From Conchocele bisecta (Eukaryota > Mollusca > Bivalvia > Lucinida > Thyasiridae): a stretch of 64,000 bases of DNA. Made by a program: the position numbers and the translations under genes. The notes under the pieces were generated by a model. The model saw only the letters and a list, made by a program, of their open reading frames with translations. It was not told the DNA's origin and did no database searches. The number at the start of each line of letters is the position of its first letter. Position 1 is the first letter of the stretch. This document shows positions 4,015 through 37,521 of the stretch, in pieces. The stretch covers positions 35,832,462-35,896,461 of the forward strand of contig CM055271.1 of the NCBI GenBank assembly GCA_029237695.1, written 5' to 3'.

Positions 4015-4165
4015 TTTTTTGTCGAGTCCGCTTGCGGAAAACGAGACATAGTGATCACAATGACCTCCATGCGTCCGTCCGTGCGTGTGTCCGAAATCTG
4101 CGTTAAAGTTTTTAAATACCATCAAATGCCTCAGCGGGCTCGACATGCGGGCCGCGACTATCTGG
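4015..4165 (+). repeat. short CGTCCG-headed element; three loose units at 3660-3960 before it
   Basis: Head TTTTTTGTCGAGTCCGCTTG, tail GGGCTCGACATGCGGGCCGC. The stretch 3660-3960 repeats TCCACGCAATAA and a GGCCA(C/T)-led block about three times. Confidence 0.65.
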
Positions 4166-4257
4166 TATTGAGAAAGAAAACATGTATAAAACAACAGCGA
4201 CAAGCGGATACTTGCCCCGCGATCTATGGGTTACACTGTGTATGTTGTACATTGCAG

Positions 4258-4342: not shown

Positions 4343-4509
4343 GTACGTACCACAATGTACAATCATTCAAAACTGCGTTTCCACTTTTATCAGTCACCTG
4401 GGTGCGCATTGAGCAAAATACACGCTAACTGATAACAAAATGCTGTATCATGTGTTAACTGGATGTAACATATCGTAGTCTATTCGTATCAAAAAACTGC
4501 CTTTGCTAC

Positions 4510-4689
4510 TGTAACGCAAATGATACCATGTGTAATCATGAGTTGAATGTGGATATAAAAATACCGATCGAGAGCATCGTGCTCCGGTAACGCAGTCGGA
4601 TAGCGCGTCCCGCTGGTATTGAGAAGGTCCCGGGTTCGATCCCCGGTCGGTGCACATTTTTTCCGTTGCATTTCCCCTATCCGGTTACA
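4510..4689 (+). repeat. TRIM 5' LTR
   Basis: TGTAACGC...GGTTACA, with short inverted ends (TGTAAC/GGTTACA). It contains a TATA-like ATATAAAAA at about 4552-4560, 20 bp before the tRNA-like segment. Confidence 0.85.
4581..4654 (+). tRNA. tRNA-like sequence in 5' LTR (Thr-GGT-like)
   Basis: 74 nt. The D-arm reads TAACGCAGTCGGATAGCGC (A box) and the T-arm GGGTTCGATCCCC (perfect B box). The 7-bp acceptor pairing GCTCCGG/TCGGTGC has one T-T mismatch. The anticodon loop CTGGTAT gives anticodon GGT (Thr). The anticodon stem has one C-A mismatch in this copy. A nuclear Thr-GGT tRNA would be unusual for an animal, so this is more likely an internal Pol III promoter or fossil than a translating tRNA. 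Confidence 0.6.
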
Positions 4690-4691
4690 TT

Positions 4692-4705
4692 TGGGGGCTC
4701 GTCCG
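4692..4705 (+). promoter_or_regulatory. primer-binding site (tRNA-Pro type)
   Basis: TGGGGGCTCGTCCG, complementary to the 3' end of tRNA-Pro, starts 2 nt after the LTR. It is the standard minus-strand primer site of many gypsy-like and retroviral elements. Confidence 0.85.
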
Positions 4706-4784
4706 ACCCTCATGAGTGTCTGTGGGCTCTCTAGAGGGGTGAACTTTGGGTGAGTTTCTTCGTAATTGACGAAACTCAAAAATA

Positions 4785-4795
4785 ACGGGGAGGAG
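4785..4795 (+). promoter_or_regulatory. polypurine tract
   Basis: ACGGGGAGGAG directly abuts the TG of the 3' LTR, as expected for the plus-strand primer. Confidence 0.75.
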
Positions 4796-4975
4796 TGTAA
4801 CGGAAATGGTACCATGTGTAATCCTGAGTTGAATGTGGATATAAAAAGACCGATCAAGAGCATCGTGCTCCGGTAGCGCAGTTGGTTAGCGCGTCCCGCT
4901 GGTATTGGGAAGGTCCCGGGTTCAATCCCCGGTCGGTGCACATTTTTTCCGTTGCATTTCCCCTATGCGGTTACA
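4796..4975 (+). repeat. TRIM 3' LTR
   Basis: Same length as the 5' LTR, with the same TATA-like run followed by the tRNA-like segment. Confidence 0.85.
4867..4940 (+). tRNA. tRNA-like sequence in 3' LTR (Thr-GGT-like)
   Basis: Better preserved than the 5' copy. The A box is TAGCGCAGTTGGTTAGCGC and the anticodon stem TCCCG/TGGGA pairs fully (one G-T). The loop CTGGTAT gives GGT. The B box is slightly altered (GGTTCAATCCCC). The acceptor mismatch is shared, so it predates the duplication of the LTR. Confidence 0.6.
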
Positions 4976-5011
4976 CTACCATTTCATTGCTCAAACGACG
5001 CCACATGACAT

Positions 5012-5292: not shown

Positions 5293-5367
5293 TGACATTA
5301 TTGAATGACATCTTTGTGATGATGCATTGACAAGTCAACATTTCTTTCATAGGTATGCATTTCTTAG

Positions 5368-5573
5368 TACAGTGGAACCTCTCTAAACCGGACACCAAGA
5401 AAACACAGTCATGTGATCTTATTTTTGATGAGTTTCTTGGTTATTTATCTCGGGTGATGATGTCTGTTCGTGATCGCATAGCACACAACTATGGCTCAGA
5501 ATGATCGATTTACAGTGAAACCCCTTTAAGCCGGAGGTCCCCAGGGTGTCCGGTTTAGAGAGGTTTCACTGTA
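5368..5573 (+). mobile_element. pogo/Tigger-like MITE
   Basis: TA-CAGTGGAACCTCTCTAAAC ... AGGTTTCACTG-TA, TA target. Similar elements: 12277-12626 (CAGTCGAACCTCCCC, complete) with a broken end at 12203. Confidence 0.8.
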
Positions 5574-5825
5574 CAGCATTTTCTCTAATAAATAGATTAC
5601 ACGCCTACTGTCTGTTCCACGTTTTTGTGCCGACTAACTTTTAGCTATTAAACACATTAAAGATATTTAAATGTAAGTAGTTTTTCATCAATAACAAAAA
5701 AGTCACCCTCCCCAATTTTTAGCCAGGTTTTTTGAAAAAAAAATCCAGGCTATTGGATTGGCGAAAGCCGGGCGGGCGGGCGGGCGGGCGGCGGGCGGGC
5801 GGCGGTCGGCGTCCACAATCAATGT

Positions 5826-7160
5826 TAAGTTTTCGTGTTTGAGTCCATTTCTTTGTTACTGTACCACCTAGGACCACCAAACTTTCACAACTTCATAATC
5901 AAAGGGTGCCCACCACATATCACTATCCAACATGTTACTTTTTTTTTAACTTGACCCATTTTTTCCCGCGTAGTCGACTTAGCCATTTTTATTCAATGTT
6001 AAGTTTTCGTGTTCGAGTCCATTTTCTTTTGTTACTGTACCACCTAGGACCACCAAACTTTCACAGCTTCATAATCAAAGGGTGCCCACCACATATTACT
6101 ATCCAACATTTTACTTTTTTTTTAACTTGACCCATTTTTTTTCCGCGTAGTCGACTTAGCCATTTTCAATGTTAAGTTTTCGCGTTTTACAATGTTAAGT
6201 TTTCGTGTTTAAGTCCATTTCTTTGGTACTGTACCACCTAGACCACCAAACTTTCACAGCTTCATAATCAATGGGGTGCCCACCACATATCACTATCCAA
6301 CATGTTACTTTTTTTTTAATTTCACCCATTTTTTCCGCGCAGTCGACTTAGCCATTTTCAATGTTAAGTTTTCGCGTTTACAATGTTAAGTTTTCGTGTT
6401 TAAGTCCATTTCTTTGGTACTGTACCACCTAGGATCACCAAACTTTCACAGCTTCATAATCAAGGGGTGCCCACCACATATCACTATCCAACATGTTACT
6501 TATTAGCCAGGTTTTTGGGAAAAAAATCCAGGCTATTGGATTGGCGAAAGCCGGGCGGGCGGGCGGGCGGCGGGCGGCGGGCGGCGGGCGGCGGGCGGCG
6601 TCCACAATCAATGTTAAGTTTTCGTGTTTGAGTCCATTTCTTTGTTACTGTACCACCTAGGACCACCAAACTTTCACAGCTTCATAATCAAGGGGTGCCC
6701 ACCACATATCACTATCCAACATGTTACTTTTTTTTTATCTTCACCCATTTTTTCCGCGTAATCGACTTAGCCATTTTCAATGTTAAGTTTTCGCGTTTAC
6801 AATGTTAAGTTTTCGTGTTTAAGTCAATTTCTTTCGTACTGTACCACCTAGGACCACCAAACTTTCACAGCTTCATAATCAAGGGGTACCCACCACATAT
6901 CACTATCCAACATGTTACTTTTTTTTTTAACTTCACCCATTTTTTCCGCGCAGTCGACTTAGCCATTTTCAATGTTAAGTTTTCGCGTTTACAATGTTAA
7001 GTTTTCGTGTTTAAGTCCATTTCTTTGGTACTGTACCACCTAGGACCACCAAACTTTCACAGCTTCATAACCAAGGGGTGCCTACCACATACAACTATCC
7101 AACATGTGACCATTTTTTTACCTTCACCTATTATTTCTACGTAATTGACTTAGCCATTTT
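5826..7160 (+). repeat. tandem array, ~195 bp unit
   Basis: Seven or so units marked by TACTGTACCACCTAGGACC, AACTTTCACAGCTTCATAA and the CGTAGTCGACTTAGCC block. A further unit lies at 8500-8720. Confidence 0.85.
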
Positions 7161-8496
7161 CAACGTTAACTTTTTAACGTAAGTCTGGTTAGAGTTTTTT
7201 GGGTGGGGGGGGGGGTAAAACTTTTTCGTTATACTATATCTCTGCAACTGCTTCGCCCATCATCAGGGCATGTCGGCCCCACCTTGCTGCGAAAGCGGGC
7301 GATCCTGTTGCAATTGTCAAGGTCCAAAATTTAACTTTTGAATTTTAAATTTTTTTGAAAGCGCGATCCTTGCCACATGTCAAGGTCAAATTACTTTGAA
7401 TTTTTTTGTTAAACTTTTTTCGTGTACTATATCTCTGCAACTGCTTCACCCAATACCTTGATACTTTCACATGGGTGTTTATCATCATTGTTGCACCTGC
7501 TTGCGGAAAGCGCGATCCTGTGCCCAATGTCAAGGTCAAATTACTTTGAATTTTTTTGTTAAAGTTTTTTCGTGTACTATATCTCTGCAACTGCTTTCAC
7601 CCCAATACCTTGATACTTCACATGGGTGTTTTATCATCATTGTTGCACCTGCTTGCGGAAAGCGCGATCCTGTGCCCAATGTCAAGGTCAAATTACTTTG
7701 AATCTTTTTCTTAAAGTTTTTTCGTGTACTATATCTCTGCAACTGCTTCACCCAATACCTTGATACTTCACATGGGTGTTTATCATCATTGTCGCACCTG
7801 CTTGCGGAAAGCGCGATCCTGTGCCCAATGTCAAGGTCAAATTACTTTGAATTTTTTTGTTAAAGTTTTTTCGTGTACTATATCTCTGCAACTGCTTCAC
7901 CCATACCTTGATACTTCACATGGGTGTTTATCATCATTGTTGCACCTGCTTGCGGAAAGCGCGATCCTGTGCCCAATGTCAAGGTCAAATTACTTTGAAT
8001 TTTTTGTTAAAGTTTTTTCGTGTACTATATCTCTGCAACTGCTTCACCCAATACCTTGATACTTCACATGGGTGTTTATCATCATTGTTGCACCTGCTTG
8101 CGGAAAGCGCGATCCTGTGCCCTATGTCAAGTTCAAATTACTTTGAATTTATTTGTTAAAGTTTTTTCGTGTACTATATCTCTGCAACTGCTTCACCCAA
8201 TACCTTGATACTTCACATGAGTGTTTATCATCATTGTCACACCTGCTTGCGGAAAGCGCGATATCGTCAGCATTTTGGCATACGTCCGTCCGTTCGTCCG
8301 TACGTCCGGTTAAAGTTTTTTGGTTAAAGTTTTTCCATCTACTATATCTATTTTTTTAGTGTCCATGCCTCGCCCCAAGGCGCGACATGCAGGCCACGGC
8401 CATCTAGTCTACAAAAAGTGGGTATAATTATGTTATCCAAGTGTCTATGCTTGGAAAAAACCTGGCCTTCGTGGCTTTGCCTCGTTTCTTGTTTTT
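6501..8496 (+). mobile_element. second copy of the same element nested in the first
   Basis: Begins TATTAGCCAGGTTTTTGGG in the middle of an outer 195-bp unit (after CCAACATGTTACT) and ends CTCGTTTCTTG at 8492. The interrupted unit then resumes with TTTTTTAACTTGACCC. Confidence 0.65.
7330..8270 (+). repeat. tandem array, ~147 bp unit
   Basis: Six to seven units marked by CAAGGTCAAATTACTTTGAA, TATCTCTGCAACTGCTTCAC and CACCTGCTTGCGGAAAGCGC. A single unit recurs at 8880-9030. The open frames here repeat with the array and are not genes. Confidence 0.88.
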
Positions 8497-9756
8497 TAAC
8501 TTGACCCATTTTTTCCGCGCAGTCGACTTAGCCATTTTCAATGTTAAGTTTTCGCATTTACAATGTTAAGTTTTCGTGTTTAAGTCCATTTCTTTGGTAC
8601 TGTACCACCTAGGACCACCAAACTTTCACAGCTTCATAACCCAGGGGTGCCTACCACATACAACTATCCAACATGTTACCATTTTTTTACCTTCACCTAT
8701 TATTTCTACGTAATTGATTTACCCATTTTCAACGTTAACTTTTTAACGTACGTCTGGTTAAAGTTTTTTGGTTAAAACTTTTTCGTTGTACTATATCTCT
8801 GCAACTGCTTTGCCCATTACCTTGAAACTTCACATGGGTGTTTATCATCATCCATATTTTCATTCTAACCCCCAACCATGCGGCCCCCTGTGCCCAATGT
8901 CAAGGTCAAATTACTTTGAATTTTTTTGTTAAAGTTTTTTCGTGTACTATATCTGTGCAACTGCTTCACCCATTACCTTGATACTTCACATGGGTGTTTA
9001 TCATCATTGTCGCACCCGCTTGCGGAAAGCACGATATCGTCGGCATTTTGGAATACGTCCGTCCTTCCGTCCGTGTCTGGTTAAAGTTTTTTCGTTAAAA
9101 TTTTTCCATCTACTATATCTATTTTTTTAGTGTCCATGCCTCGCAGGCGCGACATGCAGGCCACGGCCATCTAGTCTACAAAAAGTGGCTATAATTATGT
9201 TATCCAAGTGTCTATGCTTGGAAAAAACCTGGCCTTCGTGGCTTTGCCTCGTTTCTTGTTTTTACTTGATGAAATTCCATCAAATATTGATTTTAAAATA
9301 CATTTTTTTTAAATATGTTTTTATTTGTGGACCGATTTTCAAAATCTAACTTGTTTTCTTAGTTACATCATTTCCAAGTTATCTAAACAGTTTTCGGAGT
9401 CAATTTCCAAATTTTATTTTTGTTTACTCGTCCCCCGCTGCTTCCTCCCCCCCCCCCCCCATAGGAAAATCGTTTTTTCGCTACAAAATAAATATTTGAT
9501 GGAATTTCATCAAACAAAATGTTTTGGGAGGGTGACTTTTTTGTTATTGGTGAAAAAGTACTTACATTTAAATATTTTTTAAATTTAATGCGTTTAATAG
9601 CCAAAAGCTCGTCGGCAGAAAAACGTGGAACAGACAGTAGTTATCTTTGGTTACGTCTATCAAGCTCAGCTTGGAAACAATAGGATTACCTCTGCTCACA
9701 TGCTCTAGTTACATGCACTACAGAGTCTGGTAAATTTTATAATTATGATTATTTAA

Positions 9757-24820: not shown

Positions 24821-26378
24821 TTATAGGAATGAATCACAGGTGGAAGACTCGGACCTATGACACCAAAAAAATGCCTATTAAAAAAAATCCCATTACCCCA
24901 CCCACTTGGTCTCGTACAGTACATAACGTTAATTCAAGGTGAGCATAAATAGCGCTATTATAGAAAGAGCCCTCTTTTTTCCGGCTCGCACAAACACAAT
25001 AAACATCGATTAAATGTATGAAATATGTCTCTGGCAATCGATAAAGGTATTAGGTGTGTGAATATACTCACTTCAAATCGCTGTTTCAAGTATTTATTGA
25101 GTTATTCGCGTTTTGATTACCCCATCCAAAGCGAAAGTTGCGTGTACGAAAGAATCTCACACAGAATCGGAGGCCGTCCGGCTGGATTATCGGTCATATT
25201 TGGCCGATAGCTGATCGCCAGCTCAAACTAAAGTCGTGCACCATGATCATATACATTAGAGACTCCAACCATACAAAGTTCGTCCAATTGTGATCGTTCG
25301 CCGATCTAAAAAACACTTTTTTCTATAATTTCGTTCATTATCTGGAACTGGGTCAATGCACTATCTTCCATAATACAACCACCGAAGCGTCTATGTAAGA
25401 ACATCTCTGATTGGTTAAATCTAAAAATAGACGCAAGGACTTTCCCTTTTCAGGGTTTCCGGAAGACATAATCTGATAGTACGCGAATCATGAAAGAAAG
25501 TCAATAAAATTAGAAAAAAAGTGTTTTTTAGATCGGCGAACGATCACAATTGGACGAACTTTGTATGGTTGGAGTCTCTAATGTATATGATCATGGTGCA
25601 CGACTTTAGTTTGAGCTGGCGATCAGCTATCGGCCAAATATGACCGATAATCCAGCCGGACGGCCTCCGATTCTGTGTGAGATTCTTTCGTACACGCAAC
25701 TTTCGCTTTGGATGGGGTAATCAAAACGCGAATAACTCAATAAATACTTGAAACAGCGATTTGAAGTGAGTATATTCACACACCTAATACCTTTATCGAT
25801 TGCCAGAGACATATTTCATACATTTAATCGATGTTTATTGTGTTTGTGCGAGCCGGAAAAAAGAGGGCTCTTTCTATAATAGCGCTATTTATGCTCACCT
25901 TGAATTAACGTTATGTACTGTACGAGACCAAGTGGGTGGGGTAATGGGATTTTTTTTAATAGGCATTTTTTTGGTGTCATAGGTCCGAGTCTTCCACCTG
26001 TGGAATGAATGGCCTTGTTGTGGAATTTATCGGGGTATGAACTTGGAAAAGTCGCGGGAATACTGGACGTAGGCCGGAAGGCCTCGTCCAGTATTCCCAT
26101 TCCGGCCTACGTCCAGTATTCCCGCGACTTTTCCAAGTTTATATCCCCGATAAATTCCACAAAAAGGCCATTCATTCCTTATAATTCCAGCATTTGAAAT
26201 AAATTCATCAAGAAAATGTGTTTATTTTCAGTTTTCTTAAGGATTATTTTAACTGCGCCTCACGGTTACGGAAAGTAGTTCGGCGTTGGAGTTTACTGGG
26301 ATATAAATTTGGAACAGAGACTTGCTACGGACCAATCAAATGTTAGGGAATTGTGTAAATATTTTTGTTCTGGAATTA
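24821..26378 (+). mobile_element. element J (GGAATGAATGGCC family), interrupted
   Basis: Contains GGAATTTATCGGGG and the GACTTTTCCAAGTTTAT stem around a GTCCAGTATTCCCGCGAC apex. Related copies: about 40965-41722, 61257-61610 and 61940-62240. Confidence 0.65.
24835..26002 (+). mobile_element. giant inverted-repeat element I, 1168 bp
   Basis: Arms of about 491 bp (24835-25325, 25511-26002), essentially identical, around a 185-bp spacer. TIR CACAGGTGGAAGACTCGG; exact 8-bp duplication GAATGAAT (24827-24834, 26003-26010). No transposase is visible. Open frames in the arms are mirror copies. Confidence 0.9.
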
Positions 26379-32027: not shown

Positions 32028-32802
32028 TCATCCTTACCGGAATCCCAACTGGAGACCTGGTTTGGCCCTCACATACGTCTTTGGCATTTTGTATGTGACA
32101 GTTGAATCTGGTTATACCCCTTATAAGAGTAATCCTACCGGTATTACTTTTAAATAGGGGAAGGGGCCAAATGACTTTGGTGCGGTATGGACCTGGCACC
32201 AGGTCAGGTTATTCTAATTTCAGGGCTGAATATGTTGTATCTCGATGTAAATATTCCGTTCTGATTTTGGGATTTTCCCCCCAATGCAGCAGGTTAAAAC
32301 GGGATAGAACCTGTTTTCCCGGCCTTACATGACCTTAGCTGTTGATAGGCCGTTAAACACCAATAAACAAACAAACAAACCTATTTTAGGGGAAGGGGCC
32401 AAGTGACTTGGTGTGGAATGGACCTGGCACCAGGTCAGGTTATTCTAATTTCAGGGCTGAATATATTTTTTCTCAATGTAAATATTCTGTTCTGATTTTG
32501 GGATTTTCCCCCCAAATGCAGCAGGTTAAAACGGGATCGAACCCGTTTGCCCGGGCTTACATGGCCTTAGCTGTTGATAGGCCGCTAAACACTAACAAAC
32601 TCACCAGACTGCGGGCCCACACTGTTTTATTATACCCCTGTTCTGGGTAGAGCCGTGAAAATATAGATCTAGTGTGTGGACTGTGTGTCCGTCCGTCTGT
32701 GGATCCAGTTAACCCTTCCAACCCCAAGGAACTGGACTGTGATATGTTAGTTTAAGGGCCAGTCCAATTGTTACAAACTGATTTTCAGACAAGTCTATAA
32801 TA

Positions 32803-33715
32803 GACAGGGCTGAGCCAGGTAATAATTGCCTTTTTTTCCTGTCAAGGTTTTCTCAACGGATTCTGGTACTTCGGACCATACTGATCAAAATAAGCTTTTG
32901 CGCCATCTGGAAATTTGTCCAGAATCCAAGATGGCCGCCAAAAATTCAAGATGGCCCCCAGGATACCTAAAATTTGTCCTCTGTGGGTAGAATTTGCATA
33001 AAGATCTGGGTTTTTTTACCTAATTTGGTGATTTATGGTGAGAGAAATAAGATTCAATGGCTTAAAAATCATAAGCAGGCGTTTTCATCATGCAAATTCA
33101 AGATGGCCGCCGGGAGCGGTCCCCTGAACTTCAAAGTGCCATATCTCCTGTTCTAGAAGGACTACGGCCATAATTCTGGTGTCTATCCATAGGTTTTCAT
33201 GGTCAAGGAATCCATTTCTGCAGGTATTTTGCAAATATGACCATTCAGTCTATCAGAAAATCCAATATGGCCGCCAAAGCCAACACCCCGCTGTGTGGAA
33301 ACAATCAAAGACTTGCTATGCAGCAAGCATGACATTTGATTTGTAGTCCAGGGATATAAATTAAAGAATTCAGGTAGAATAATGCATTTAAACTAATCAA
33401 TATGTTTATTTAAGAAATCCGTAAATTGTCACTCTGTGGTGACTTATCTTTCATATAGCCTTTGAATGATGATTGGGGCTGTTGTTGCAGCCTCTCAATC
33501 TCGGAGAGTCCTGTTGTTTCAACCATAGTCAACTGATACTAATATCAAAAAAGGTTGTAATGTCAACTCAAGGCTTTTGTGATCATATGACTACCTTGTA
33601 TTGGCATAAAATAGCCCTAACATTATTGTCCTATCAAAGGTCAAAAGGCCCGTGAGTATTCAATGCACCATACATTTTTAATTTTTAGTCTGTTGCACTG
33701 TCTCCTTATTCACTA
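32803..33715 (+). repeat. left terminal inverted repeat
   Basis: Matches the reverse complement of 36373-37290 with few differences. It contains several AAGATGGCCGCC-like motifs (near 32929, 32948, 33101, 33262). Identical 60-aa open frames occur in both arms, which is expected of a repeat and is not evidence of a gene. Confidence 0.9.
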
Positions 33716-33729
33716 AGACAAGCCATATC

Positions 33730-36382
33730 ATGGCAAAGCTTAGATCATTGCTCAAAGAAAGGCTAGATGTTCTGACTGCCTCAACTCATAAGGAGATCAA
33801 TATAGGCGCACGGAAACAGCACGAGAAAATGGTTGGTTCACTTGTCCTTCAACTGGATAAGTACTTTGATCCCTTCTTGGCTGGGCCTGCTCGGCATATG
33901 AAATCTGGCAAGGAAATTGACAACGATGTTGTGAAGGGATTGCTATCGTCGCGGGAGAGAAACAGTACAAGGAATTTGTTGACTCAAGGCTCAAGGCAAC
34001 AGGGGAGGAGAGAGTGAATTTCTTCGACAGTATCAAAAATCTGAAAATAAAGACAGGGCAGGAGAAACTGAAGAAGACTCCCAAGGCACTCAATATTCTC
34101 AAGGAGGACAGACAAGCATTTGGCGTGTTGGTGGGCAAAGCAACGACTCCAGAAGAGGCCCATTCCCACCCACTAACAACGGTGCCACTTTCCCTGGCCA
34201 CTCCTGAGAGAGATTTACGTCAAGGTCTGAAATCTAAATTTAGGAACTACCTCATTGAAGAATCTTCCTCTGTAGGATATGAACCAATTGACAGGAGTAC
34301 ATGGCTAATTGATGGTATGGCCGCAGTGAACTCTATTCCATCCAAGCCTACGTGGGGAGAATATGCAGATGTCCTGTTAAAGTTCTGCTTGCCACCAAGT
34401 AAAGCAAAGCCTGTACAGCTAGGAATAATCTTTGATTCGTATTGCACAGTTACCACAAAAGAGCTGACACAAATCCGCCGAGGGACTCCAGGCCGTAGGA
34501 TCCATATCACGAATGCTGATCAGAGCATGCCAAGAGGCAAAGATTGGGACTCATTTCTTTGCAATCCAGAAAATAAGACAGAGCTCATCAAGTTCTTGGT
34601 TGAGTGCTACAAAACTGATTCGGTGCGATCGAGACTTGGACTTCCATTGACAGTTACAGAGGAGAGTAACACCTGGATGATAACCCGTACAGGCATTGCA
34701 CAGCTTGAATCTTGCAACCACACTGAAGCCGACACCAGGCTTGTCTATCATGCCTGCAAGTCAAAAGATCCTGTCATCATCAGGGCCACGGACACTGACA
34801 TCTTGATCCTCCTCAGTTATGGCTACTCAGTTTGCAAACCAGAACATGATTGGCTGATGAAAGTTGATGATAGATATACATCAGTGTGAACAAGCTAGTC
34901 GCCTACTTTGGAGTTGAAATATGCAAACTACTTCCTGCCTTCCACAGCATAACCGGCTGTGACACCACATCTTACCCCTTCAGTGTTGGCAAGGTCAAGC
35001 CATTCAAGAAAATGTTGAAGGAGGGGAAATCAAATCAGCTTTCAGGACTCGGTAGATCCATCGATGCTGTTCAAGACACTGCAGAAGTCAAATGTTTCAT
35101 GCAAACGTGCATGTACACTGGAACGGATGGGGAAACATTTGTGGAGACCAGAATCCGAATGTACAATAAGCAGAAGGTGAAATCTAGTTCAGGGATCTTG
35201 CCAGATGAGAGCAGCGCTGGTGAGCACATCAAGAGGAGTGATTTCCAGGCACAGATATGGTACCAGTGTCTCCAGCCAAATATCGAGTACCCGTCCATCA
35301 CTGACAGCGGCTGGGAAAGAACAAGCGAGGGTATCCGACCAATTTGGTTTACATGTCCACAACTGCCACCCAGCCTCTCCAAGAAAAAGACCAAGAGAAA
35401 GGATCAACAGAAAGGTAAGCAGTGTTTCTCTAATATGATGCAATTCTTTTCAAATCCACTCAGATGTAACATGAACAAAGCACATACATTTAATTCAATG
35501 TTCTGTCTTGCAGGCTCAGCTGAATATGACGTAGATCTTGAGAAATTGGATGAGAGTGGCCCAGCTCAACCAAAGAAGAGGAAATCCTCGAAAAAAGCTG
35601 CTGATGCTCCCTCAAGGGGACGAAAGAAACACGGTACGTACACAGGCAAATTTAACTCTTGGGCCCTGCTAAAAGAGGTGTTTTTTTCAATTCTTACATG
35701 CATGATATTGATCATGATTAAAACGTTGCATCAATTTATTCCAGGTCGAGCTGCCTCTACAGAAAAGACCAGGGAGAAATTTGATCAGTCCACCCAAAGC
35801 GTGTCAATGCAAGAGACTGCACAAAGCAAAAAAAACAGGTAAAATTCCATCGCTTTGCAATCAATTGATATCTTCCAATTTTGTTTGACGAATCATTAAT
35901 AAAGCGCATAGATGTACAATATATATTTAATCCAATGTTCTGTATTGCAGGCTCAGCTGAATATGACGCAGATCTTGAGACAGTGGATGAGAGTGGCCCA
36001 GCTCAAACAAAGAAGAGGAAATCCTCGAAAGAAGCTGCTGATGCTCACTCCAGAAAACGAGTTTATTGTAGATATATTTCTTTATCCCTATCATAGCCAT
36101 TTTTTTTCATTTTTCTTCAAAATTTTAACCTTGCTCAAAATGTTAACATCAATTACAGGTTCAACTGATTGTGCAGATGAGACCATGGAAGAGAATGATC
36201 AACTACTTCATGAGGAACAAAAAGGAGAACACGCTTCGGGAACTGGTGACGAGTGCTTTGGTGACGATGAAACGTCTGAAACCGAGGATACATATATGGA
36301 GAACGCTTCTGATAGTGACATTTCTGAATTCTGTTTAAGCTCTGAAAGTGATAATTTCAGTGATCTTGACATTAGTGAATAA
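33730..36382 (+). pseudogene. FEN1/PIN-like nuclease gene of the TIR element (frameshifted)
   Basis: Multi-exon gene. The main exon (33730 to about 35414) shows five spaced acidic motifs in the order of FEN1/XPG-type 5' nucleases: LIDGMAAV (about 34306), FDSYCT then ELTQIRRG (about 34431), HTEADTR (34719-34739), TDTDIL (34788-34805) and GCDTTSY with a following GK (34955-34975). These parallel FEN1's D34, D86, EAEA, EDMD and GSDY sites. Two +1/-1 frame breaks interrupt it: one near 33935-33945 (the downstream frame reads IVAGEKQYKEFVDSRL) and one near 34870-34890, between WLMKVDD and SVNKLVAYFG. Small C-terminal exons (35514-35633, 35745-35838, 35951 to about 36053, 36159-36382) encode basic, NLS-like and then acidic tails. 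The nuclease fold is inferred from motif order only; similar 'HEADTR...DTD...GCDTTS' proteins recur in invertebrate genomes without a named function. Confidence 0.75.
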
Positions 36383-37290
36383 GGAGACAGTGCAATAGAC
36401 TAAAAATTAAAAATGTATGGTGCATTGAATACTCACGGGCCTTTTGACCTTTGATAGGACAATAATGTTAGGGCTATTTTATGCCAATACAAGGTAGTCA
36501 TATGATCACAAAAGCCTTGAGTTGACATTACAACCTTTTTTGATATTAGTATCAGTTGACTATGGTTGAAACAACAGGACTCTCCGAGATTGAGAGGCTG
36601 CAACAACAGCCCCAATCATCATTCAAAGGCTATATGAAAGATAAGTCACCAAAGAGTGACAATTTACGGATTTATTTATACAAAATAAACATATTGATTA
36701 GTTTAAATGCATTATTCTACCTGAATTCTTTAATCTATATCCCTGGACTACAAATCAAATGCCATGCTTGCTACATAGCAAGTCTTTGATTGTTTCCACA
36801 CAGCGGGGTGTTGGCTTTGGCGGCCATATTGGATTTTCTGATAGACTGAATGGTCAGATTTGCAAAATACCTGCAGAAATGGATTCATTGACCATGAAAA
36901 CCTATGGATAGACACCAGAATTATGGCCGTAATCCTTCTAGAACAGGAGATATGGCACTTTGAAGTTCAGGGGACCGCTCCCGGCGGCCATCTTGGATTT
37001 GCATGATGAAAACGCCTGCTTATGATTTTTAGGCCATTGAATCTTATTTCTCTCACCATAAATCACCAAATTAGGAAAAAAACCCAGATCTTTATGCAAA
37101 TTCTACCCACAGAGGACCAATTTTAGGTATCCTGGGGGCCATCTTGAATTTTTGGCGGCCATCTTGGATTCTGGACAAATTTCAAGATGGTGCAAAAGCT
37201 TATTTTGATCAGTATGGTCCGAAGTACCAGAATCCGTTGAGAAAACCTTGACAGGAAAAAAAGTCAATTATTACCTGGCTCAGCCCTGTC
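36373..37290 (-). repeat. right terminal inverted repeat
   Basis: Inverted copy of the left arm. The last codons and TAA stop (36380-36382) of the element's gene fall inside it, so the arm boundary was set at the coding end. Confidence 0.9.
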
Positions 37291-37521
37291 TATAAGAAGA
37301 GGGTGTTTTTTTCTCTAAAAAAATATGAAAATTACTTGCAGAAAGTGTATATCCTGATGAGACGGCTCGTCACGAGCCGGCTCATCTGGATCTACATTAT
37401 TTACCAATACCACTACACAGGTCTGTACTGTTGAAAGTGTTAAGAAGTTTGCCTGAGTTTCTCTCATCTGCCGCCAGGGTCATTTGTTTGCCAACAGGCC
37501 ACATTTCCTTGTGTATATCTG

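What the first reader, a model, noticed from the sequence alone, without database searches (positions are those of the whole stretch)
4510..4975. Miniature LTR retrotransposon carrying a tRNA-like gene inside each LTR
Seen directly: 180-bp TG...CA direct repeats, a 4-bp CTAC duplication, a tRNA-Pro primer site, a purine tract, a 106-bp interior, and in each LTR a 74-nt cloverleaf-capable sequence with canonical A and B boxes and anticodon GGT. Known: plant Cassandra TRIMs carry 5S rRNA promoters in their LTRs. A tRNA counterpart in an animal would be a parallel invention, giving Pol III transcription of a retroelement. Inference: the B box may drive expression, and the element moves in trans.
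Basis: partly seen in the sequence, partly recalled or inferred. Interest (0 to 1): 0.88.

Follow-up and report, generated by a model that had tools for sequence, protein, structure and literature searches.

The report
Tiny clam retrotransposon with tRNA-like LTRs
A 466-letter jumping gene in a clam carries a tRNA-like sequence in each of its two end repeats; it is real and repeated throughout the genome, but elements of this kind (named Helenus) were already described in 2024, so it is a new member of a known group.

Summary
Window 4510-4975 is a complete TRIM: 180-bp TG..CA LTRs, CTAC duplication, tRNA-Pro primer site, polypurine tract, 106-bp interior, and a tRNA-like sequence in each LTR (ARAGORN Thr-GGT; Rfam tRNA 42.7 and 58.5 bits). 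The host genome (a thyasirid bivalve, most likely Conchocele bisecta) has 175 matches to the LTR/primer-site junction and 288 to an LTR-start pattern, with 0 in the reversed-pattern controls. Perfect 4-bp duplications flank 31 of 40 best-match loci, 22 of 40 junction-selected loci and 12 of 17 solo LTRs. tRNA calls: 82 of 84 and 63 of 72 LTRs. This fits Helenus as defined by Kojima in 2024 (PMC10886601), so the "animal tRNA counterpart of Cassandra" is not new. New relative to that paper: a heterodont host, a second unrelated family in the same genome, and a candidate Gypsy partner. LTR anatomy (TATA, A box, B box, T6) suggests a complete Pol III unit, but the 5' LTR's T6 would then have to be read through. 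Pol III transcription is untested and a functional tRNA is not supported.

The parts
4506..4509 (.). target-site duplication CTAC, left
   Evidence: TSD test (L001)
4510..4689 (+). 5' LTR, 180 bp, TGTAAC...GTTACA
4554..4560 (+). TATAAAA box in 5' LTR, starting 27 nt before the tRNA-like start (same spacing in 70 of the 71 LTRs, of 84, where both were located)
4581..4655 (+). tRNA-like sequence in 5' LTR, ARAGORN Thr(ggt), Rfam 42.7 bits
4588..4599 (+). A box position in 5' LTR (off consensus: TAACGCAGTCGG)
4632..4642 (+). B box in 5' LTR (GGGTTCGATCC)
4657..4662 (+). T6 run in 5' LTR, like a Pol III terminator
4692..4705 (+). primer-binding site, 14 contiguous nt complementary to host tRNA-Pro plus CCA, after a 2-nt spacer
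4751..4778 (+). interior hairpin (z -2.6 for 4745-4790; arms exact in 37 of 44 interiors)
4787..4795 (+). polypurine tract GGGGAGGAG
4796..4975 (+). 3' LTR, 180 bp
4840..4846 (+). TATAAAA box in 3' LTR
4867..4941 (+). tRNA-like sequence in 3' LTR, ARAGORN Thr(ggt), Rfam 58.5 bits
4874..4885 (+). A box in 3' LTR (TAGCGCAGTTGG)
4918..4928 (+). B box in 3' LTR (GGGTTCAATCC)
4943..4948 (+). T6 run in 3' LTR
4976..4979 (.). target-site duplication CTAC, right

Best explanation
[quoted passage not shown] Shown: two LTRs with a TATA box, tRNA-like A and B boxes and a T-run; a tRNA-Pro primer site; a polypurine tract; 4-bp duplications; dispersed full copies, solo LTRs and short tandem arrays. [quoted passage not shown] The repeated R segment is then the pre-tRNA-like unit itself, U3 lies upstream and U5 is the 27 nt after the T-run. 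Reverse transcriptase and integrase are supplied in trans by a Gypsy element priming on tRNA-Pro; a family with a 6.6-kb copy in this genome is the best candidate found.
For: Anatomy. Copies: 44 places including the window, 40 of 294 candidates scored; 175 LTR/PBS junctions, control 0; 288 U3 matches, control 0. TSDs: 31 of 40 loci, 22 of 40, 12 of 17 solo LTRs. tRNA calls: 82 of 84 LTRs, 63 of 72, 18 of 20 loci picked as single hits. T-run of 4 or more: 83 of 84, 68 of 72. TATAWAW: 77 of 84, 65 of 72. AATAAA/ATTAAA: 0 of 84, 0 of 72. B box: 74 of 84, 59 of 72. PBS: 14 nt to host tRNA-Pro genes. Gypsy candidate. Published kind: PMC10886601.
Against: The T6 after the tRNA-like unit should stop Pol III before it reaches the primer site, so read-through must be assumed. 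Stem pairing in 147 tRNA segments (9 of 156 LTRs dropped for gaps) is no better than in column-shuffled controls (91.4% v 91.3%), and the window copies fold no better than shuffles. In one search the A box and T-run were among the less variable parts but the B box was more variable than most of the LTR, and that set was chosen for similarity to the window. 34 of 44 interiors have one mismatch to the window's 14-nt PBS and 2 have more. Beyond its ends the Gypsy candidate LTR shares only a 9-mer with this LTR, not significant (69 of 1000 shuffles), and that LTR has only 18 places. The TATA box could equally serve Pol II.
Confidence: 0.67

Rival explanations
1. Same TRIM, but expressed by RNA polymerase II from the TATA box. 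The tRNA-like segment is a passenger, for example from an old SINE insertion into an LTR, and no longer matters.
For: TATAWAW in 77 of 84 and 65 of 72 LTRs. No covariation in the stems. A TATA-bearing TRIM that lacks the 5S promoter is reported beside Cassandra in Asteraceae (passages of PMC10853983).
Against: No AATAAA or ATTAAA in any of 84 and 72 LTRs, while the Gypsy candidate LTR has one ATTAAA and no run of four T (one short motif, weak). T-run at the expected place in 83 of 84 and 68 of 72 LTRs. A second family, unrelated outside the tRNA part, carries its own tRNA-like unit followed by a T-run.
Confidence: 0.22
2. The LTR tRNA is a working tRNA-Thr(GGT) gene, so the element adds to the cell's tRNA supply.
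For: ARAGORN calls Thr(ggt) in 81 of 84 and 60 of 72 LTRs. Kojima reports seven bivalve families that can encode tRNA-Thr.
Against: T.T mismatch in the acceptor stem in 144 of 147 segments, and no covariation. That eukaryotes avoid a GGT anticodon for Thr is recalled, not tested. Kojima argues that Helenus is unlikely to encode functional tRNA.
Confidence: 0.07
3. A SINE or a plain tRNA gene cluster that only looks like an LTR element.
For: tRNA-like head with A and B boxes.
Against: LTRs, PBS, PPT, 4-bp duplications, solo LTRs with duplications, LTR-interior-LTR-interior-LTR arrays.
Confidence: 0.01

Closest known systems
Helenus (Kojima 2024, PMC10886601; outline, parts 1-4 of 6 and the tables section read)
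   Same: TRIM with a tRNA-like sequence with A and B boxes in each LTR; PBS and PPT; 4-bp duplications in animals; some bivalve families can encode tRNA-Thr and some prime with tRNA-Pro; Gypsy partner inferred; tandem arrays reported for the zebrafish family.
   Different: Host here is a heterodont bivalve; the bivalve hosts in Table 1 are all Pteriomorphia.
Cassandra (plants)
   Same: TRIM with a Pol III promoter sequence and terminator in the LTR; tandem LTR-interior arrays (passages of PMC7215508).
   Different: Cassandra carries 5S rRNA sequence; here it is tRNA-like.
Ajax (nemerteans, PMC10886601)
   Same: Animal TRIM with a small-RNA-derived promoter sequence in the LTR.
   Different: 5S-derived, 5-bp duplications.
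biv-TRIM (bivalves, PMC6934838)
   Same: TRIM in bivalves including heterodonts; terminal repeats 202-218 bp; short interior; PPT GGGGAGA; interior inverted repeats; tandem copies.
   Different: Part 1 of 5 and passages on tRNA were read. They compare the interior with tRNAs, find no unambiguous PBS, and say nothing of tRNA sequence in the terminal repeats; whether it has any was not tested here, nor were sequences compared.

Membership tests
TRIM | Under 1 kb, two LTRs, no transposition proteins | tested here: met
   466 bp, 180-bp LTRs. A 157-aa reverse-strand frame runs across it; it was not scanned for domains
TRIM | PBS next to 5' LTR and PPT next to 3' LTR | tested here: met
   window PBS 14 contiguous nt to host tRNA-Pro; terminal purine run of 10 in 38 of 44 interiors
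TRIM | Target-site duplications of fixed length, solo LTRs | tested here: met
   4 bp: 31 of 40 and 22 of 40 loci; 12 of 17 solo LTRs
Helenus | tRNA-derived sequence inside the LTRs | tested here: met
   82 of 84 and 63 of 72 LTRs; Rfam tRNA above gathering score in both window LTRs
Helenus | Animal members: 4-bp duplications | tested here: met
Helenus | Common ancestry with published bivalve families | not testable with these tools
   sequences are in supplements; supplement look-ups capped at 0
TRIMp3 | Transcribed by RNA polymerase III | not testable with these tools
Cassandra | 5S rRNA sequence in the LTR | tested here: not met
   at gathering threshold Rfam finds only the two tRNA matches in the window
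SINE2 | tRNA head, no LTRs, mobilised by non-LTR elements | tested here: not met
   LTRs, PBS, PPT, 4-bp duplications
functional tRNA gene | intact acceptor stem, pairing maintained by selection | tested here: not met
   acceptor T.T mismatch in 144 of 147; pairing 91.4% v 91.3% shuffled

The most novel reading that the evidence does not exclude
The LTR is a Pol III version of a retroviral LTR: TATA plus A and B boxes set the start of R, the whole pre-tRNA-like unit is R, and the T6 is the R/U5 boundary, doing what the poly(A) signal does in Pol II LTRs: ignored in the 5' copy and obeyed in the 3' copy. This host lineage has recruited tRNA promoters into LTRs at least twice (two families unrelated outside the tRNA part), with Gypsy machinery used in trans.
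Probability: 0.35. Interest if true: 0.6.

Novelty: new member of a known kind. Interest (0 to 1): 0.35.

Why it matters
It extends Helenus, relative to the 2024 paper, from pteriomorph to heterodont bivalves: either the group is older than that split or tRNA promoters were captured again. It also offers a chromosome-scale host with many copies, solo LTRs, a second family and a candidate driver element, so the question of how a Pol III transcript crosses its own terminator and enters Gypsy replication can be tested. Practically, such copies inflate counts of predicted tRNA-Thr(GGT) genes.

Tried and rejected
Rejected: SINE, tRNA cluster and chance-repeat readings (TSDs and solo LTRs). Tested without support: covariation in the tRNA stems; thermodynamic stability of the tRNA-like RNA; homology of the Gypsy candidate LTR beyond its ends. 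The 22-nt repeat at 4153-4174 (D4) was not scored as tRNA down to E 1 and was dropped as chance. Not answered: a genome count of the tRNA 3' half to set against the U3 count (all 'busy') and a genome scan with RF00005. So the share of LTRs lacking the tRNA rests on the fetched samples, and the host's true tRNA-Thr genes were not compared.

Full report
What is there. Window 4510-4975 holds two 180-bp direct repeats, 94% identical, around a 106-bp interior. The repeats begin TGTAAC and end GTTACA and are flanked by CTAC on both sides; the interior begins TT + TGGGGGCTCGTCCG and ends GGGGAGGAG. ARAGORN calls tRNA-Thr(ggt) in each repeat and Rfam's tRNA model scores 42.7 and 58.5 bits. The 5' LTR copy is the more decayed: its A box is off consensus and several stem pairs are lost. 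Folded alone, the 3' copy takes the cloverleaf and the 5' copy does not; neither is more stable than dinucleotide shuffles.

Is it a mobile family? Yes. The unit is found at 44 places, the window copy included, the others at 92-96% identity; only 40 of 294 candidates were scored, so this is a lower bound. A 22-nt pattern over the LTR/PBS junction, up to 2 mismatches, matches 175 places, reversed-pattern control 0. A 30-nt U3 pattern, up to 3 mismatches, matches 288 places, control 0. In 40 loci covering the places, 31 have perfect 4-bp duplications. In 40 further loci, chosen by an exact junction, 22 have them; 36 of these 40 gave both LTRs and 4 were incomplete. Of 20 exact U3 hits that stood alone in the listing, 17 were full-length solo LTRs, 12 of them with perfect duplications; two of the 12 (L121, L122) share the same duplication on one contig and may not be independent; the other 3 of 20 proved to be full or partial elements. 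Four of the first 40 loci are LTR-interior-LTR-interior-LTR arrays, three with duplications outside the array. First and last LTR of a locus are 91-100% identical in the first set; the window copy, at 169 of 180, is among the lowest. Interiors are mostly 107 bp in the first set (38 of 44); the second set has both this form and one of about 97 bp, mostly 84-86% identical to the window's.

Is the tRNA part of it? Yes. ARAGORN calls a tRNA in 82 of 84 LTRs of the first set, 81 as Thr(ggt), and in 63 of 72 of the second, 60 as Thr(ggt) (its 73rd row is a file trailer). First set of 84: A box 78, B box 74, TATAWAW 77, T-run of 4 or more 83, AATAAA or ATTAAA 0. Second set of 72: B box 59, TATAWAW 65, T-run 68, AATAAA or ATTAAA 0. 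The TATA box starts 27 nt before the tRNA-like start in 70 of the 71 LTRs where both were located. So most LTRs have the parts of a Pol III gene. That does not show a working tRNA: a T.T mismatch sits in the acceptor stem in 144 of 147 segments (9 of 156 LTRs were dropped for gaps) and pairing is no better than in shuffled columns, 91.4% against 91.3%. The first set was picked for similarity to the window, so low variation there is no evidence of selection; within it the B box is more variable than most of the LTR, the T-run among the least.

Primer and partner. A 21-nt tRNA-Pro 3'-end pattern has 28 places in the host, control 0, and each of the three stretches read holds at least one ARAGORN tRNA-Pro. 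The window PBS matches tRNA-Pro plus CCA over 14 contiguous nt; of 44 interiors, 8 match that 14-mer exactly, 34 with one mismatch, 2 with more. A pattern for other LTR ends next to this PBS found 28 places, control 0. Of the five read, three belong to one Gypsy family, one (L091) to a more distant relative, and one (L090) to the TRIM family. One Gypsy copy, C8:6172266-6178847, is about 6.6 kb with 170-bp LTRs (TGTAGT...CTTACA, 97% alike), CATG duplication, the same 2-nt spacer, an 18 of 18 tRNA-Pro PBS and a G-rich PPT. Its frames, taken as they stand, match reverse transcriptase, RNase H, integrase zinc-binding and MYND-finger models. That it drives the TRIM is inference: beyond the ends only a 9-mer is shared and 69 of 1000 shuffles do as well.

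Host. The assembly has 1.89 Gb, and the contigs numbered 1 to 17 that were sized are 64 Mb or longer. Its mitochondrial COX1 (L042) is 100% identical over 539 residues to a UniRef entry labelled Thyasiridae, a heterodont family. The published Conchocele bisecta genome has 17 pseudo-chromosomes and 1.27 Gb of TEs at 66.96%, i.e. about 1.9 Gb (passages of PMC9993606). The species name is a strong inference.

A second family. Locus L064 also holds an unrelated TRIM: 140-bp LTRs (TGTCAC...GTGACA), 105-bp interior, CTTG duplication, tRNA-like units in both LTRs, each followed by a T-run. Only the tRNA-like part resembles the first family (50 of 76 columns). It lies in a local satellite; joining its flanks restores the repeat unit but for one base, and 10 copies of the uninterrupted 23-mer occur in the locus. 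Its own primer site was not identified.

How it works. Shown: LTR-retrotransposon anatomy and insertion signature. Established for the class (general knowledge and PMC10886601): tRNA-primed minus strand, PPT-primed plus strand, integrase with fixed duplications. Inferred: Pol III transcription. The T6 lies between the tRNA-like unit and the PBS in the 5' LTR, so a normal Pol III transcript would stop before the interior. The consistent solution is partial read-through at the first T6 and termination at the second, which makes the pre-tRNA-like unit the R region. Reading through intervening LTRs is presumed for Cassandra arrays (passage of PMC7215508). The Gypsy candidate LTR has an ATTAAA and no run of four T, the opposite arrangement, but one short motif is weak evidence.

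Known or new. Kojima 2024 (PMC10886601; outline, parts 1-4 of 6 and the tables section read) defines Helenus as TRIMs with tRNA-derived LTR sequences, with 4-bp duplications in animals, tRNA-Pro among the bivalve primers, seven bivalve families able to encode tRNA-Thr, Gypsy partners inferred and tandem arrays in the zebrafish family. Its bivalve hosts are all Pteriomorphia (Table 1). biv-TRIM is known from heterodonts, but the parts read do not report tRNA sequence in its terminal repeats. Searches for 'Helenus' with 'retrotransposon' (3 papers: Kojima's, a meeting report seen in passages, a butterfly genome not opened) and for 'TRIMp3' (4 papers, only Kojima's on this subject) showed no later extension. 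So this is a new member of a known kind in another bivalve branch. The library holds open-licence papers only, and Repbase was not searched.

Noticed in passing
L064:3668-4052 (G000:C4, about 51.672 Mb): Second, unrelated Helenus-type TRIM with 140-bp LTRs, tRNA-like units and CTTG duplication, inserted in a local satellite whose uninterrupted unit is present beside it.
   Followed up: yes
G000:C8:6172266-6178847 (L088, L092, L094): Gypsy element of about 6.6 kb with 170-bp LTRs, tRNA-Pro PBS and a MYND finger upstream of the reverse transcriptase; its LTR has 18 places, some spaced about 9.2 kb apart on C13.
   Followed up: partly
window 24835-26002: Perfect inverted repeat: two 488-nt arms, 100% complementary, 192 nt apart.
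   Followed up: no
window 32800-37293: Long inverted arms (three adjacent pairs, 97-98% complementary, about 0.9 kb per side) around reading frames at 33682-36382; three of these frames have no Pfam match at E 0.01; may be a DNA transposon.
   Followed up: partly
window 5787-9121: Tandem arrays with units of about 191 and 149 bp downstream of the element.
   Followed up: no
window 5367-5574: 30-nt inverted arms, 97% complementary, 148 nt apart, MITE-like.
   Followed up: no
L041 (G000:C400), L044 (G000:C998): COX1-family matches that look bacterial (L041, no stops in the bacterial code) and protist-like (L044), probably symbiont or contaminant contigs; lineage judged by eye.
   Followed up: no
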